A stretch of 64,000 bases of DNA from positions 1 through 64,000 of the forward strand of contig AJFK01000128.1 in assembly GCA_000467715.1 (NCBI GenBank). Reading direction: 5' to 3'. The first letter of the stretch is position 1. Every line of letters begins with the position of its first letter. A model generated the notes under the pieces. The model searched no databases. It saw only the letters and a list, made by a program, of their open reading frames with translations, and had not been told where the DNA came from. A program made the position numbers and the translations under genes. Positions 5,449 to 43,609 of the stretch are shown one piece after another. The stretch comes from Hysterium pulicare CBS 123377 (taxonomy: Eukaryota; Ascomycota; Dothideomycetes; Hysteriales; Hysteriaceae).

Positions 5449-5782
5449 GTTGCTTGGGAGCTAGGTAAGCCCTTTGAAAACAAAATGTGCACGGGCAATA
5501 TTTACCTAAGCACATTTCCGATTCAGCTTGGTGATGGCAACTGGCTTTAACGACGTTTGCCAGGTCGGACTAATCTATGTAGCATAGAGGCAGACATACA
5601 TACTTCAGTCGCATGTTAAGGCTTCAAAACACATCCCTAGGTAGGTAGACAATTTGATACTCCGGTGCGTGCACGGCCCTGTTGAGAAAATACAAGCATT
5701 TCACTAGCTCAGCCCTATGCGACTTTTCATCGCGAACATCAACATCCACAGCTGCTTCCCTCGACCCTCACTGCACTCTACC
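5449..5782. promoter_or_regulatory. Bidirectional promoter region, dynein LIC / Ist3
   Basis: The 334 bp between the two divergent start codons must hold both promoters and leaders. No TATA box stands out. The Ist3 frame is open back to an ATG at 5717, but family alignment favours the ATG at 5783. Confidence 0.5.
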
Positions 5783-6673
5783 ATGAACACGATCAGACAG
5801 ATCCAGAATTTGAACAAGCGGGAACTCGAAGAAGCTATCACACCCGAAGGATCATGGCACGCCGACTACCGCGACACTGCATACATCTACATTGGCGGCC
5901 TTCCCTTTGACCTCTCCGAAGGCGACATAATCACAATATTCTCACAGTTCGGCGAGCCTGTGTTCATCAATCTCGTACGGGATAAGGAAACCGGCAAATC
6001 TAAGGGCTTTGCATTTCTCAAGTATGAAGACCAGCGAAGTACCGATCTGGCTGTGGATAATCTTGGTGGGGCTACCATCATGGGCAGGATATTGAGGGTG
6101 GACCATACGAGATACAAGAAAAAAGACGATGAGGAAGAAGCCGACAATACTATGGGATATCACGATCTTCCAGAAGATGAAGAGGAGGGCAGAAGGAAGA
6201 AGAGGCGGACGGAAAGTGAAAGTGAGGAGGAACGACCGTTGCTTCCAGAAGAGATCGAGTTGGCGAAACTCATGCGGGAGCACGATGACGAAGATCCTAT
6301 GAAGGTTTATTTGATTGAGCAGAAGAAAGAGGAAGTCGAGGTTGCTCTCAAGAAGCTGAAGAAGGGCAGGAAGGATGGCAAGCGCAAACACCACTCCAGG
6401 CGACACAATCGCGACCGTTCTGCAGATGATGGTGGTAACAGACCGCGAGATAAAGCCAAGTCACGAAGAGATCAAAGTCCTGCCGAACGCAAAAGACTTC
6501 CCGAGCGGACGCGGAGCCCCGATGAGCGTTCCCGGAGACATCGCGAGAGATCACATTCACGGGATCGCAGAAGACGCCGGTCTGTGAGCACATCTACCTC
6601 TGAGGAAGATAAACGTGGGAGTCATCGTCGAAGAGCCAGGTCACGCAGCGGCGAAAGAAACGGCAGGCTGTGA
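5783..6673 (+). CDS. Ist3/RBMX2-like RNA-binding protein of the RES spliceosomal complex
   Basis: Intronless gene, 296 residues. The N-terminus MNTIRQIQNLNKRELEEAI is the conserved leader of the Ist3/Snu17/RBMX2 family. One RRM domain follows at about residues 34-112, with RNP2 AYIYIGGLPF and RNP1 KSKGFAFLKY, then RVDHTRYKKK, which in the yeast protein helps hold Pml1 and Bud13. The second half is acidic, then rich in Arg-Ser, Arg-Asp and Arg-Arg, like an SR tail; yeast Ist3 is much shorter and lacks it. The expected role is in the retention-and-splicing complex on U2 snRNP in the nucleus. An in-frame ATG at 5717 would add 22 unconserved residues and was not chosen. Confidence 0.9.
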   Translation: MNTIRQIQNLNKRELEEAITPEGSWHADYRDTAYIYIGGLPFDLSEGDIITIFSQFGEPVFINLVRDKETGKSKGFAFLKYEDQRSTDLAVDNLGGATIMGRILRVDHTRYKKKDDEEEADNTMGYHDLPEDEEEGRRKKRRTESESEEERPLLPEEIELAKLMREHDDEDPMKVYLIEQKKEEVEVALKKLKKGRKDGKRKHHSRRHNRDRSADDGGNRPRDKAKSRRDQSPAERKRLPERTRSPDERSRRHRERSHSRDRRRRRSVSTSTSEEDKRGSHRRRARSRSGERNGRL

Positions 6674-13218: not shown

Positions 13219-13639
13219 AGTCTTGGAATTACACCCTCGTTCATGCCATGAGATCTGCTTTTAATTGGCAGGCCTACGAGTCCTTGAATCCCTTGTGATT
13301 CCGAAAGCCATGGTCTTCGCGGACAAAGGCTACTCTCGGGAATTTTCATTCGCGCTACTATTCATTAACTGCCAAAGGGTTGTCCCTTTCACAAATGTAA
13401 TCCGACCTATCTAAAACGTAACAATGACTCACCAGCAGCGCCTGTTTATAGCAGAACTAGCTGTCAGAGACGGGATATCCATCAGCCAGCTTTCAAAGGA
13501 TCATCTGTGAACATCACATACGCTATAAATGTCATTCGAGCTTTTCAGTAAACAGGACTTCGGTTTCCACGTCTTCTTCCTTCATCATATGCCGAGTTGT
13601 TAGAACACCCAATTACTTCCGCAACATCTTCCCTGGCGT

Positions 13640-14398
13640 ATGGATGTGGCAGCGGCCTCTTTCTATCTTTGGAAACTTGTCTCGCTAGGAAGCGTTGAAC
13701 TCGCCCCCGTAAGGTCACCACGAGCATGCCGCGCATGTGAGCTTCCTCTCCACTTATTTCGATTCCACAGAGTTATATCCGCGAGACTTCTCCGTGGTCT
13801 TGCCGGCCTATTGAATTCATTTGGTGAGAGTGCCCCCATCACGTATTTCAAATTTGTTCCCTCTGTCTTTCAAGCATACTACCCACAGGACCTTCTTATA
13901 AATTCCTCCGCCAGCCAGATTTCTTGGATCGGGACGCTGCAGTCATGCTTCATTATGCCGGGCTCCATCTACTCCGGACCGCTCTATGATTGGGGATATA
14001 TCCGGCCACTCGTCGCCACCGGCGGTTTTCTCATAGTTTTCGGCATGTTTATGCTAGCCTATGTACCAGATACTGGCAGGTCATGCTGGCTCAGGGTTTA
14101 CTCATGGGCCTGGGCCTTGGCTGTCTCTTTACACCGTCCACCAGTGCTATCGCCAGCCATTCTACCAGACGGAGGGGGTTTGCAATGGGCGTCGTCAGTA
14201 CTGGCAGCACTCTGGGTATGTACACACAGGAATTTTCGACGGATTTGGAGACTGAACTTACCATCACAAGGCGGCATCATCTACCCTGTCATGTTCCACG
14301 CAATCGTCGGGCCGGCCGGTTTTGGATGGGCAACGAGAGCCATAGCATTCGTGATGTTCGTCGTGCTCATTTTGCCACCACTGCTTTTTGCGGGATGA
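13640..14398 (+). pseudogene. Decayed MFS transporter, monocarboxylate-porter type
   Basis: The frame holds family blocks of the fungal monocarboxylate transporter-like MFS proteins. SASQISWIGTLQS and the following SGPLYDWGYIRPLVATGGFLIVFG correspond to helices 2-3. A shifted frame carries VMLAQGLLMGLGLGCLFTPS (helix 4). GIIYPVMFHAIVGPAGFGWA lies after a still recognisable intron with donor GTATGT at about 14216. The copy ends abruptly mid-protein after about six helices, and the expected second half is missing downstream. Together with the neighbouring decayed hydrolase and P450 it suggests one dead metabolic cluster. Confidence 0.75.
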
Positions 14399-15473
14399 AT
14401 CCGTGTGTCAGTGTGAAGTTAGGAACCCATCGAAGTGAAGGCACGAATTGAAGAGAGTGCTATCGATTTGTGGTGAATGACAAGGCCGACTATATAGATG
14501 ATGAAAGAACCCTAATATCAGCAAGGTGATATAGAATACCGCGTCAGCCTGCACGAATAGCTTGCGCGTCCAACCAACTAGCAAGGACAGCTTGGCTTAC
14601 AGTAAGAGTCTCACGATTTGAGATCGCTGTGGGTTTGCAGCAATGAGCAAATTGTTCTAAACTTCATCTCATGATCAGGTGGGTAAGTACATTGTACTTG
14701 TTTAGTTGATTTGTCGTTAGCCTCCTTTCTTCTCAGCTTGATCTAATTGGCATTACATGTGTTTGAATCTTCATGATTTTTGCCGTCAAGCCGATTTCAA
14801 GGGCATTATATAGAGTCATGAAAGTAGAACCCCGGATAGCGCATAGCGATATCGCCGCCTCGGTGACTGACAGACAACGGAAATCGGAGTGATACATACT
14901 TAAAAATGATTGGCTAGTATGTAGGCCTTAGGGTCAAAAGAGTGGCGGACATAAGTTGTTACTGTGAGGCTTGTTGCCTTTGCCACCCAGCGCCTCAACT
15001 TTCTGCCACACACCCTGCAGACATTTCTCAAGATACTGCCGCTTGCTGGTCCCTATGCCCTGCTTCCCCTTTCAGTTCCGTTCCAAATTGGACTAGTAGA
15101 CGTCACAGGTTACGGTGCAGTCGCTCCGCACTAATCTTGACTCGAAACATGGCTTCTTCACGGAGCTGTTCAATATCAGAGTCGTCCATTAGATTGAAGA
15201 CGCATCGTTGAGAGCAGTCGCAGCAACGTCAGGCACGGTGCTTGACAGCTGAAGGGCGGAGGGAAAGTATGTAGACATACTATTTCGCTCATTGTTGAGA
15301 CTGATCCCATCTGATTTAGTCTATGAATCATTGTGATTCCGTGTTGACGCCTGCTCGCAAGAGATACGTATAACGCAACCATAAAAAAGGTTGGAGGTTC
15401 TCAGGAGGGAACGCATGCCAAGTGTTGGGCTTCTTGCCTTTAGCAGTCCTCAATCTTCTTTCGCCACCCGCTG
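14399..15473. other. Intergenic, no gene recognised
   Basis: About 1.1 kb with only short unmatched frames (for example 14942-15211). It may hold further unrecognisable remains of the decayed stretch and the 3' end of the phosphatase gene. Confidence 0.45.
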
Positions 15474-17948: not shown

Positions 17949-19715
17949 CTAGGCCTGTCCAGCAGATCTAGCCAGCATTCTTGAACTCGCGAAAGTTCCC
18001 GTTCTTGTCACCTTCACGCCCGGAAATCCCCAAATCCCCTTTTCAAGGTCGATATTATCGTGCATCGGCAAGGATGCAAAGGTATTAGGGCACTCCTTGG
18101 TTTTGCATTTCTCCAATGCTGCAATCGTTTCGTAGATTGTCTCGTGGGCATTGCCGGGGGATCTGTCCAAAGTGGCCATTGAATCGGATGTGGTTGGTCG
18201 AGCAACTGATGGTGGAGGATCCTGAGGCTTTTCTGCCATATAATCGTCATATGTCTTACCCGCCGTTTTAGCAGCACGTCGGACATGACGGGTTCGGTAG
18301 AGCCAGATGAACTGTGACGTGAAAATGCCAACTTCAAGAAGTAAACTAGCCGCATGATTATTAGGATAGTTCTTCAACAAAGCAGATAGGCCTAGCACGA
18401 GTGGATACCAGGAAGATGGAAAGGCAACTGACCAGACGATATATAGTGATCCTCCGATATAATCGAAGGTGTTCTGCGCAACTACCATGATAGGTCAGAA
18501 ATCATGGCTATGGTGTGTGTTGGTTTGTGCGACAAATGGAGTGAAAGGGTAGAATACCAAGGGCCATTAATGAGAAGAATGCGCCGGACCAGTCAACGGT
18601 CAGGAATATGAAGTCTGAAGACTAGTCAGCCAGAAAGTTCGACCTCGATACGACGGTCCGTACTGATGCCAATTACTCGGCCTCCTCTTTTCGCCAACTC
18701 AAAGTATGGCGGAATCAAACCAACAGCCAGCATCGCGGACGCAATGATGGCCAACATCGTAAGAGGCCAGGAGATACCCCTGGAGTAAGGGCCCTGAAGC
18801 ATGATCAGATCAAGCACCCAGGGAAAAAGGTAAGGCTGGTTCGCATACACGAAGAGTGAGCACGAGGATAGCCTCCACCACACCAAATCCGATAGAGAGA
18901 AATCCAGTAACGAGGACGGCCGTCCAGGGCCTCCAGCCACTGCGGACGGTCAGCGCTTCGAAAGTACCAAGTTAACAGGAAGCCGAACTCATGATAAACG
19001 AGGGTTTGGCCCCAGCAGACTAGCGTCAGGAATCCGAAGCACTGTGGCTGAATTTGGAGAGGTAAATTGAAGTTCTGTTAGACGTCAATTGTACTGCTGG
19101 CTGATATCATCGCATGGAGAGCACCTGAACGATTGCATAGACGCCAAAAGGCACAGCACCTGGAGCCAGTCAATCCCTAAGTTCGAGTAACAACAGCTGA
19201 GGTGGCAGTACACGCAGCCCAAAGCATGACCATCAGCCCAGGAAGACCATCGGTCTTCTTGCAGCGCCAATTATGCCATATCCTTCCGGAGGTGAGTAAT
19301 CGATCTTCATCCCAGCAGTTTCAGATGTAGCTTACTGCGGAATAAGCTACGATGTTATCTCAGTCTTCGCTTTTCGACAAATGGAGGAACATTCGAGCAG
19401 TTACCTGAACACACCAGCAACTGTACACATATCTCACGTCAACTCTTGCTTCCCATCAAGTTTCTTCGACTTTCACATACACTGGGAGGAGTCAGCGATC
19501 TGTCCGTAAGGGAAGTTGCGTCGACTTGCTCACCAGTTCCGATAGTCTGTGATTAGAAAATGAAATCGTTAGTCCAGCTCGATTGCACTTGACATCAGAT
19601 GTAAGAGGGGCATACCCCGAGAACGTTGGCAACCTTTACAGTCAATGTGTCAGCAGAACGCACTCTATTTCTCTGGTGGAGCACCTACAGGTGGAATCGA
19701 GGTCTGAGCTTGCAT
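17949..19715 (-). CDS. PQ-loop repeat membrane protein with 14 exons, several of them micro-exons
   Basis: Multi-pass membrane protein of the PQ-loop (lysosomal/vacuolar transporter-like) class, 333 residues. Exons on the minus strand: 19689-19715, 19616-19633, 19534-19546, 19481 alone, 19405-19420, 19336-19346, 19212-19282, 19125-19159, 18989-19074, 18849-18939, 18664-18793, 18558-18614, 18433-18481, 17949-18345. They total 1002 nt. The first PQ motif reads GTVCWCVQLIPQIWHNWR, followed by KKTDGLPGLM; a second repeat lies around LIPPYFELAKRGGRVIGINF and LTVDWSGAFFSLMALVAQN. A long soluble tail follows. The 1-nt exon is required because without it the strongly conserved VCWCVQ is out of frame. 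The donor of intron 9 (GTTCGG) is weak. The role is probably amino-acid or related transport at an internal membrane; the substrate is unknown. Confidence 0.75.
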
Positions 19716-35211: not shown

Positions 35212-36329
35212 CTACAGCAAAATGAGGTAATTGCTAGGAGCGATGCCAGTCTCGCCGTTTGGCTTCTTTGCTTGCCACCACCTTCCGCTGACATCTGAAA
35301 CTTCGAGAATATCGTGCTTTTGGAAGCTGATTTCATTTGCATCGTCTGGATTCGCTTCGTAGCTGTAGATGGCCTTGGCGCGATATGGGTACTCTACTGA
35401 CGTGTCGGCCTGTCCATCATTTGGACCATCTGTCGGAGTGTGTACTTGGGACGCGTTGTTCATGCCCGCTGCACCGAAACGTGGCTGGGAAGAGTTCCTT
35501 TGATCGACACCAACCGGACCGCCGGGATAACCGGATACAGGAGAAGAAGTCTCAAATCCATTTAATTGAGCTGAAGTATACATTTGGGGAGCTGGGTTTG
35601 CAACCGATGTATCGGGACGCGCGCCGTAGTTGTTGGACATGGGGCGTGAGTTGCGGCCGGGGTTTTCCTTGTGCAGGGCGTAGGAGTCAACGAAGGTGCG
35701 GTGACTGGCCTGTGGTTGAGAGCCGTAGTAGAAAATCCAGACGATCTGTCCCCTGATTGTTAGATTTGCGTCATTAGGAAGCCAGACTCGACGTACCGCG
35801 ACCATAGAGAGAAGGATGAAGCCGGCAGCAGAGGCTTCGAATGCAGCCACTGAGGAGTACACCAGGGAGTTGACAGAAGACGTAGTGAACACGAGGCCCG
35901 CCGCAAGAAAACCGACGATCTGTTGATGTTAGCATTACCCTCTCGAAGAGTCAAACAGTTGTGGCATACCGCGACGTGATATGTACGCTCTGAATCTGAT
36001 GCCACAGTGACTGTGACACCAATAATGCAGAATAGCATGAAGACAAGCGCCCACCAGGCGAAATTGGGGAAGCCTCCGTGAACAGCAGATATTATTGAAC
36101 TGATAAAGGCGATTATCCAAGCCAGCTGGGGGTGGAAATTGAGTCAGCGTTGTCCTCAGCGGACGGTCTGAGAGCGATACAGGCCACTTACCACGCCAAT
36201 TGAGATCGTTGCCAGCGCAAATGGGTCGCCGACGATACGACCGAAAGAAAAAGTCGATCGGCTTCCATAACTATGTCCGTTTTCCATTTTGTGCAGCGAC
36301 GGGGAGGGTATGGAGCCGTAGGATGGCAT
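35212..36329 (-). CDS. Sho1-type osmosensor with four membrane helices and an SH3 domain
   Basis: Four exons (36192-36329, 35970-36125, 35797-35919, 35212-35745) give 316 residues. Sho1 feeds the HOG and filamentation/invasion MAP-kinase routes at the plasma membrane. The N-terminal part reads [17 protein letters not shown], then four closely spaced helices, with [14 protein letters not shown] and [16 protein letters not shown] between them and [23 protein letters not shown] after them. A proline/serine linker leads to the C-terminal SH3 domain, from about residue 255 to the end. It is recognised by [37 protein letters not shown] and [15 protein letters not shown]. Both ends agree with family length. 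The start chosen gives [16 protein letters not shown] 14 codons later is possible. Confidence 0.94.
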
Positions 36330-42064: not shown

Positions 42065-42615
42065 TATAGTTGGCTGTGGACTGTGAGATCGTGGAAGACG
42101 TGAACTTTCGATGGGTGCAATGATCTCGGAAGGGAAAAACAGACCGGAGCCAAGCTTTTCTGACAGGGGCGAATTGACAAATCAGATCAGGGATGAATGG
42201 ACTGCACCAGAACTGTATTATTCTGGCGGCTTCACCCACACTAACTTTAGACTAGGATTATCAAATGTTGATATACACCGTTCAAATCTTTCCGCAAAGT
42301 TAGTGTGACTTGCATCTAAAGGCGCTGCCGTGAGGTTTGCCAACTTGTTTCTCCTCTCTAGTGCATCTTTATGTCCGGTTCACGAAAACATTGATTAGTG
42401 CACTCCTAGATTCGGACCATGTGAGACTTTATTAGTTGATTGATCACGTTTCACGTCAGTTCAAGCTGGAGATGCTTCCTTCTCCGGCACTCCGATGGAT
42501 AAGTGATTTGATACTGCTCGCTCTAGTTATTTTTGAGTAAACTAGGGAACATCCTCATTTAGAGCGATTTCTTGTCTTCCGGTTCATCTCTGGGAGGTGA
42601 AGTGGTTGATTTCTT
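42065..42615. other. Intergenic, no gene recognised
   Basis: Promoter of the bS16m gene and 3' end of the epimerase gene; only short frames. Confidence 0.45.
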
Positions 42616-43609
42616 TCACAATTTTTGTCCTTCGACTGGGACCTCGGCAACCTGATCCAGCCCATGGTACTTGGGTAGGTCAAGTCCATACTTGTCAGCC
42701 ATCTCCTGGCTCAAGAATCTGCCTCCAACAAAATGCCTCCCTTTGAACCACTTTATCAGAGGCTTCGGCGCTGTTAACGAAATGAGAGCTTGTGGCTCAA
42801 AGCCTTTCCCGGGCCCGGCATCCGGCGGACCGTCTTCGATATTCCAGGATGATGGAGCATCGACCGCTAGAACAGGGATTTTTGTCTCTCTAAGAGCTTC
42901 AATGACTTTAGGGAAAGGCTCTCGAACCTCTCCCGAGAATGAGAAGCCTGGGCCTTGTAAGCTCATAGATTGCGGTAGGAGGTATTTAGCGACTCCTTGA
43001 ACTGACCGAAGATGGCATCTACAATATGATCTGTTTGCTTCAAGGCAGCTTCGAAGTCTTCTGTGAAGGGAATTCTGAGGTCCTTGAGTTGTTTGCTGAG
43101 ACGCTGTTGTTGTTAGGCTCGAGGGTTTCGGGACCACTTGAAACTGGTCAGTTTACCTGATAGAGCTCGTTCTTGCTCTGTTTGGGATAGTATACAGTGG
43201 GTTGGTAGCCGTAGTGCCAGAGGTGACGGGCGGCAACAAGACCATCTCCACCTATAGGACATATCAATTACTTGGTAGTTGGAGGGGTAAAGTAATGTAG
43301 TACCGTTGTTTCCTGGCCCGCAGGCTACGAGGATACGCTTTCCTTGGGCTAAGGGCTGGAGCTTAAAGACTTTAAACAGTTAGGTATTGCATGAGGAAGA
43401 CAGCAAGTTAAAGGCATTGATAGGGCTCTCGTACCGGCTTGTGACACAGATAACCCGGCCAGCTCCATTAACTGGTCGATGGAGAATGCACCTGCGCTCA
43501 TGAGCTCTTGGTCCAGAGCTGCGGCATTCTTCGCAGAGAGGGTCTGAGTGAGTTATTAGAGTAAGACGGTAAGACGCTTACTGAAGCATGGACGTACTCT
43601 CAATGCCAT
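42616..43609 (-). CDS. NAD(P)H-hydrate epimerase (YjeF N-terminal family)
   Basis: Six exons (43598-43609, 43435-43543, 43304-43369, 43157-43251, 43007-43103, 42616-42953) give 238 residues. The enzyme epimerises damaged NAD(P)HX so that the dehydratase can restore NAD(P)H. Motifs: [12 protein letters not shown] with the start helix; [19 protein letters not shown]; the nucleotide-binding [17 protein letters not shown], which is split by an intron inside [14 protein letters not shown] with the catalytic aspartate; [14 protein letters not shown]; and [10 protein letters not shown]. The first exon has only four codons (MALR). There is no long mitochondrial presequence, so cytosolic or alternate targeting is likely. 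It shares a 392-bp promoter with the methylcrotonoyl-CoA carboxylase gene. Confidence 0.92.

What the first reader, a model, noticed from the sequence alone, without database searches (positions are those of the whole stretch)
19421..19533. Apparent one-nucleotide exon in the PQ-loop gene
Seen on the minus strand: two canonical introns lie back to back with one T (position 19481) between them. Intron 3 (19482-19533, 52 nt) starts GTGAGC, has a GCTGAC branch site and ends CCCAG. Intron 4 (19421-19480, 60 nt) starts GTATGT, has TTGACG and ends TACAG. The family-conserved block GT-V-CWCVQ needs the codon GTT, built from G (exon 3), T (the lone base) and T (exon 5). Treating the 113 nt as one intron shifts the frame and destroys a strongly conserved PQ motif. 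The full 14-exon model totals exactly 1002 nt with no stop. Single-nucleotide exons are almost unknown; the arrangement is related to, but different from, fungal twin introns (stwintrons), where nothing is left between.
Basis: partly seen in the sequence, partly recalled or inferred. Interest (0 to 1): 0.8.

Follow-up and report, generated by a model that had tools for sequence, protein, structure and literature searches.

The report
One-letter exon in fungal transporter gene
A fungal gene for a cystinosin-like membrane protein appears to contain an exon of a single DNA letter, a rare arrangement already documented in a few plant genes and one Fusarium gene, so this is a well-supported but unproven further example.

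Summary
On the minus strand, a 52-nt intron (19482-19533) and a 60-nt intron (19421-19480), both GT-AG, leave one T (19481) between them. The 14-exon model is 1002 nt without internal stop.

Of 139 distinct products of one or two GT/GC-AG excisions between exons 3 and 5, 27 are open and in frame; only the one-nucleotide exon keeps PQ-loop spacing. It aligns without net gap to Pfam PQ-loop and, weakly, to cystine-transporter and SemiSWEET models, and ranks first of 18,338 distinct sequences against cystinosins.

No orthologue or transcript could be reached, so splicing is inferred, not shown.

Nuclear one-nucleotide exons are published: APC11 and VPS55 in plants, CYP621A in Fusarium. This is a probable further member of that kind, not a stwintron. 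It lies in a run of exons of 18, 13, 1, 16 and 11 nt, most likely spliced by two successive intron-defined reactions.

The parts
19481..19481 (-). exon 4: single nucleotide T, middle base of codon GTT (Val20)
   Evidence: only enumerated exon 3-5 product that keeps PQ-loop length
19482..19533 (-). intron 3, 52 nt, GTGAGC...GCTGAC...CCCAG
   Evidence: highest summed splice-signal score of the 13 introns
19421..19480 (-). intron 4, 60 nt, GTATGT...GTTGAC...TACAG
   Evidence: 5th of 13 by summed score; best donor of 13 under published Fusarium frequencies
19534..19546 (-). exon 3, 13 nt, encodes TIGT plus first base of Val20
19405..19420 (-). exon 5, 16 nt, last base of Val20 plus CWCVQ
19616..19633 (-). 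exon 2, 18 nt
19336..19346 (-). exon 6, 11 nt, LIP and most of the PQ glutamine codon
17949..19715 (-). whole PQ-loop membrane protein gene, 14 exons, 1002-nt CDS, 333 aa
   Evidence: Pfam PF04193 67.8 bits, E 6.9e-19, residues 11-69 on profile 2-60
19421..19529 (-). rival single GC-AG intron (donor GCAAGT, 109 nt), in frame, Val20 becomes Gly-Asp
   Evidence: 58.9 bits against 70.3 for the one-nt exon model

Best explanation
The gene encodes a fungal PQ-loop (cystinosin/SWEET-like) membrane protein. Its first PQ-loop helix is coded by a run of tiny exons, one of which is the single nucleotide T19481. Shown from sequence: two complete GT-AG introns of ordinary fungal size, each with its own branch-like site, flank the T, and including it restores both frame and conserved spacing. 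Inferred: the two introns are removed one after the other by intron definition, because the machinery for the upstream acceptor and the downstream donor can hardly both sit around one base. Removing intron 3 first seems slightly more likely, since it has the strongest summed signals, but this hint is weak. Either order gives the same mRNA.
For: Alignment without net gap to Pfam PQ-loop (residues 11-69 on profile 2-60; 70.3 bits for the fragment), and to TIGR00951 cystine transporter (12-68 on 4-60, 22.0 bits) and SemiSWEET_2 (15-65 on 1-51, 18.0 bits); these last two are far below their cut-offs (192.35 and 80), and both rival forms tested there (GD, 7-aa insert) score lower. Human and Arabidopsis cystinosin chains have the same G-x12-PQ spacing, with W two residues after the position aligned to Val20. 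Only 1 of 27 open in-frame exon 3-5 products has the right length. First (35.0; next 29.5) of 18,338 distinct 17-residue ends among 74,460 enumerated in-frame splicings. Introns 3 and 4 score 20.0 and 17.6, 1st and 5th of 13. Strict chance of such a split 3 of 6,080. A single 109 or 113 nt intron would be longer than each of the other 11 introns (49-87 nt).
Against: No cDNA, reads or orthologue. Only a few one-nt exons are documented in the papers I saw, whereas GC-AG introns are 1.009% of annotated fungal introns (PMC7072748, passages). The rival's in-frame GCAAGT is itself an uncommon coincidence (26 of 6,080). Splice scores do not exclude a single 113-nt intron (19.2); only the frame does. 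A non-canonical 112-nt intron (GT-CA or TG-AG) would give Gly instead of Val at a Pfam cost of only 1.2 bits (69.1; NCBIfam 19.7 and 16.5). With loose criteria the split arises in 90 of 6,080. A one-base assembly error cannot be excluded without reads.
Confidence: 0.84

Rival explanations
1. A single 109-nt GC-AG intron (19421-19529) is removed; the protein reads GTIGT-GD-CWCVQ, one residue longer, as main or minor isoform.
For: In frame with no stop; donor GCAAGT is the usual GC-donor core (recalled); GC-AG introns are about 1% of annotated fungal introns (PMC7072748).
Against: Costs 11.4 Pfam bits (58.9 against 70.3) and lowers both NCBIfam scores (16.7 against 22.0; 15.2 against 18.0); puts Asp into the presumed first transmembrane helix (peak 19-residue hydropathy 1.16 against 1.50); exon bases TGA before the donor fit poorly (summed intron score 15.9); must skip the nearer GCTGAC...CCCAG acceptor; 109 nt against 49-87 nt for the other 11 introns.
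Confidence: 0.09
2. Assembly or sequencing error: one base is missing in the window and the 113 nt are a single ordinary GT-AG intron.
For: A single 113-nt intron has good signals (19.2); a one-base error would give exactly this frame problem.
Against: The rest of the 1002-nt model is open; it would leave the AG-T-GT split with its own branch site as a coincidence (3 of 6,080 strict); 113 nt is long for this gene.
Confidence: 0.04
3. A non-canonical 112-nt intron (GT-CA, or TG-AG) is removed and codon 20 is GGT (Gly).
For: Keeps length; Pfam 69.1 bits, only 1.2 below the one-nt model.
Against: Needs terminal dinucleotides outside GT-AG and GC-AG; all such combinations other than AT-AC make up 0.257% in fungal annotations (PMC7072748). 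Not covered by my enumerations, which used GT/GC-AG only.
Confidence: 0.01
4. A stwintron ([D1,2] type): intron 3 splits the donor G|T of an outer intron that begins with G19534 and T19481.
For: Geometry is similar: exon 3 ends in G and the lone base is T, so removal of intron 3 creates a GT.
Against: The recreated donor ACT|GTGTAT scores -2.4 against 7.1 for TGT|GTATGT. With the intron 4 acceptor the product would be 28 nt, out of frame; the open in-frame nested product that starts at this G is 12 nt and loses VCWCVQ.
Confidence: 0.01
5. Single intron ending at another acceptor (19443), inserting seven residues in the helix, or the gene is a decaying pseudogene.
For: In frame without stop.
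Against: 56.1 Pfam bits against 70.3, with profile positions 2-10 lost from the match; GAG acceptor, summed score 11.8; the rest of the gene is open.
Confidence: 0.01

Closest known systems
CYP621A one-nucleotide exon, Fusarium (PMC12940212; abstract, Results and Discussion seen)
   Same: Nuclear gene of a filamentous fungus; one base between two GT-AG introns; middle base of a codon in a conserved motif; frame and motif spacing demand it; a single intron would be about twice the usual length.
   Different: There the base is G (AGGGT), present in 20 orthologues (24 genes in their Figure 2) and supported by 18 SRA reads; here the base is T, one locus, no reads. Unrelated gene.
APC11 one-nucleotide exon, Arabidopsis (PMC4674806; abstract, Results and Discussion seen) and land plants (PMC8831610, passages)
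   Same: One-base exon needed for frame; intron definition with stepwise removal proposed; in Arabidopsis constructs A, T and G were all spliced in.
   Different: Plant; the base is A within a 422-nt stretch first taken as one intron; proved by cDNA and reporter constructs.
VPS55 one-nucleotide microexon, land plants (PMC8831610, passages)
   Same: One-base exon near the N-terminal-coding end of a membrane protein gene; leaving it out alters the predicted transmembrane helices.
   Different: Conserved across land plants, RNA-seq and RT-PCR support, alternative isoforms. I did not see which base it is.
Stwintrons (abstract starts; passages of PMC6616335, PMC9024468, PMC5639578)
   Same: Two U2 introns of ordinary size in close association in filamentous ascomycetes, removed by consecutive intron-defined reactions.
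   Different: In stwintrons one intron lies inside a splice element of the other and no exon base lies between; here both introns are complete by themselves and one coding base remains.

Membership tests
one-nucleotide exon (nuclear, spliceosomal) | complete canonical introns on both sides of one base | tested here: met
one-nucleotide exon (nuclear, spliceosomal) | base needed for frame and conserved protein | tested here: met
   the GC-AG rival also keeps frame but not spacing
one-nucleotide exon (nuclear, spliceosomal) | base present in mature mRNA | not testable with these tools
   no reads or cDNA held
one-nucleotide exon (nuclear, spliceosomal) | conserved in orthologues | tested here: inconclusive
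   no relatives in genome contigs (bacteria, archaea) or viral contigs; no fungal genome collection offered
stwintron | internal intron interrupts donor, branch or acceptor of an external intron, giving the functional mRNA | tested here: not met
   the one product with PQ-loop spacing arises by two separate excisions, not nested ones
GC-AG intron | GC donor with AAGT and an in-frame product | tested here: met
   but the protein fit is 11.4 bits worse, so it is kept as a rival
PQ-loop family | PF04193 match above gathering score | tested here: met
   67.8 bits against cut-off 22; one stretch only

The most novel reading that the evidence does not exclude
A second, independent nuclear one-nucleotide exon in fungi, this time T, inside a run of five consecutive exons of 18 nt or less. 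Its geometry (G|intron|T followed by GT) makes the intermediate readable either as a one-nt exon or as a [D1,2] stwintron. This would suggest that one-nt exons and stwintrons can interconvert by a 2-nt donor shift, and that such exons are widespread but missed in intron-dense fungal genes. The last two steps are speculation.
Probability: 0.2. Interest if true: 0.6.

Novelty: new member of a known kind. Interest (0 to 1): 0.42.

Why it matters
One-nt exons are easily missed by gene finders and read mappers. Each confirmed case corrects a protein and tests how short an exon an intron-defining spliceosome tolerates. A second fungal gene, unrelated to CYP621A and with a different base, would argue that the Fusarium case is not a curiosity and that frame-breaking 100-140 nt introns in fungi deserve a systematic search.

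Tried and rejected
Considered and rejected: single 113-nt intron (frameshift, stop after 44 aa); 7-aa insertion through acceptor 19443; nested stwintron products; introner-like origin (introns 3 and 4 hit only themselves and short chance matches in the window, best E 0.085 and 0.10, with no hit to each other at E up to 1); a second one-nt exon elsewhere: the only other YTRAY-YAG-N-GTRNGT composite in the window, at 42243 minus, lies downstream of the YjeF_N-type ORF 42616-43152, with no coding context that I could see by eye.

Led nowhere: relatives in genome contigs (23 and 161 pattern matches, none confirmed by tblastn) and viral contigs (no pattern match); PDB search with 242 of the 333 residues (one hit at E 1.2 to an unrelated short protein, taken as chance); literature search for six family peptides (0 papers); search for fungal GC-donor context (0 papers); PQ-loop papers in filamentous fungi (listing only). 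The yeast-like probe found the same cystinosin chains (and one unrelated hit at E 1.1) and added nothing. I did not use structure prediction, because the spliced protein is not a direct translation of the window. I did not build gene models for other genes in the window, so the splice-signal matrix rests on 11 introns of this one gene.

Full report
Observation. The minus-strand sequence was read and the gene rebuilt independently. Introns 3 (19533-19482, 52 nt) and 4 (19480-19421, 60 nt) are complete GT-AG introns with branch-like sites GCTGAC and GTTGAC, and a single T (19481) lies between them. The 14 exons sum to 1002 nt and give a 333-aa protein without internal stop. Exons 2 to 6 are 18, 13, 1, 16 and 11 nt, so the lone base sits in a run of very short exons.

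What the gene is. The protein matches Pfam PQ-loop (PF04193) with 67.8 bits, E 6.9e-19, over residues 11-69 on profile positions 2-60, so without net gap (the alignment itself was not shown). NCBIfam adds weak matches, far below their cut-offs, to the lysosomal cystine transporter model TIGR00951 and to SemiSWEET_2, again without net gap. Human and Arabidopsis cystinosin chains from the PDB, found with a probe recalled from memory, show the same G-x12-PQ spacing, with a Trp two residues after the position aligned to Val20. The later stretch that looks like a second repeat reads LIPP where the first reads LIPQ (by eye); Pfam reports one stretch only. I take it to be a fungal cystinosin/PQ-loop-type membrane protein; its substrate is unknown. 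The source is most likely a filamentous ascomycete, inferred from intron style and the gene types seen (9 of the 70 ORFs of at least 130 aa were scanned); the species is not known to me.

Which splicing fits. Keeping the outer boundaries of exons 3 and 5, I enumerated the products of one or two successive GT/GC-AG excisions of at least 38 nt, nested ones included: 139 distinct products, 27 in frame and open, of which only one (the one-nt exon) has the 30-nt length that keeps the spacing. Letting the stretch from the ATG to the fixed start of exon 7 vary (up to six introns of 45-125 nt, GT or GC donors, AG acceptors, not nested) gave 74,460 open in-frame splicings; those with at least 17 residues before IWHNW hold 18,338 distinct 17-residue sequences, and the one-nt model scored highest against the two cystinosins (35.0; next 29.5). 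This uses two related references, and the listed top candidates share their last nine residues, so it compares the disputed part only.

The strongest rival. A single 109-nt GC-AG intron (19529-19421) with donor GCAAGT is in frame and turns Val20 into Gly-Asp. Pfam gives 58.9 bits against 70.3 for the one-nt model; TIGR00951 gives 16.7 against 22.0 and SemiSWEET_2 15.2 against 18.0. The insertion puts Asp into the presumed first helix and lowers its peak hydropathy from 1.50 to 1.16. Its donor context is poor (TGA before GC; summed score 15.9 against 20.0 and 17.6 for introns 3 and 4), and 109 nt exceeds the other 11 introns of the gene (49-87 nt). Against my reading stand the prior (GC-AG is 1.009% of annotated fungal introns, PMC7072748, passages seen, whereas I found only a handful of one-nt exons in print) and the simulation: an in-frame GCAAGT arises by chance in 26 of 6,080 segments, while the strict one-nt split arises in 3, strict splits around 4, 7 or 10 bases in 4 each, and the loose one-nt split in 90 of 6,080. 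Both coincidences are uncommon, the split about nine times more so under strict rules. I give the rival 0.09 and do not call it excluded; it may also exist as a minor isoform. A non-canonical 112-nt intron (GT-CA or TG-AG) giving Gly20 would cost only 1.2 Pfam bits and is set aside on splice-site rules alone.

Splice signals. With matrices from the other 11 introns (each of these scored with itself left out), summed donor, acceptor and branch scores rank intron 3 first (20.0) and intron 4 fifth (17.6) of 13. The branch weights were set by hand, and the training introns were placed by me, so this is a rough guide. A single 113-nt intron scores 19.2 and is not excluded by signals. With donor frequencies from 2,022 Fusarium introns (PMC5677156, table passage seen; zero or unstated values set to 0.001), intron 4 has the best donor of 13 (8.2) and intron 3 the fifth (6.1); the GC donor scores 1.5. 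After removal of intron 3 the donor of intron 4 scores 7.1 instead of 4.3 on the gene's own matrix, but 7.2 instead of 8.2 on the Fusarium one; the alternative [D1,2] donor that the junction creates scores -2.4 and 1.1. So the hint that intron 3 leaves first is weak and matrix-dependent.

Mechanism. Introns of filamentous ascomycetes are mostly short and recognised by intron definition (PMC6616335, passages). Guo and Liu proposed intron definition combined with stepwise removal for APC11 (PMC4674806, Discussion). The same scheme fits here: one intron is removed, the lone T joins exon 3 or exon 5, then the other intron is removed. This is inference; no intermediate was seen.

Comparison with the known. 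Nuclear one-nt exons have transcript support in plant APC11 (PMC4674806, Results) and VPS55 (PMC8831610, passages) and in Fusarium CYP621A (PMC12940212, Results and Discussion). Fungal mitochondrial rnl has one between group II introns (PMC12308204, passages), which is a different kind of intron. The present case resembles CYP621A at sequence level but lacks transcripts and orthologues. It does not meet the stwintron definition. That I know of no other fungal nuclear case in print rests on searches of the open library only.

Verdict. A probable, not yet proven, new member of a known but very small class. The locus is a good test case because the main models predict different junction sequences.

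Noticed in passing
19336-19633 minus: Exons 2-6 are 18, 13, 1, 16 and 11 nt: five consecutive exons of 18 nt or less encode most of the first PQ-loop helix.
   Followed up: partly
18664-18793 minus: The later PQ-like motif of the protein (exon 11) reads LIPPYFE, PP where the first motif has PQ.
   Followed up: no
5708-6673 plus: ORF with an RRM domain that resembles Ist3/Snu17, a U2-associated RES complex protein (name recalled).
   Followed up: no
35212-35928 minus: ORF with a C-terminal SH3 domain after apparent membrane segments, reminiscent of the osmosensor Sho1 (name recalled).
   Followed up: no
13604-14398 plus: ORF reminiscent of an MFS transporter by eye but with no Pfam hit up to E 0.001 in this frame; an ORF in another frame (13990-14451) overlaps it, so it may contain introns or be broken.
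   Followed up: no
42243 minus: Only other YTRAY-YAG-N-GTRNGT composite in the window; no coding context seen.
   Followed up: partly
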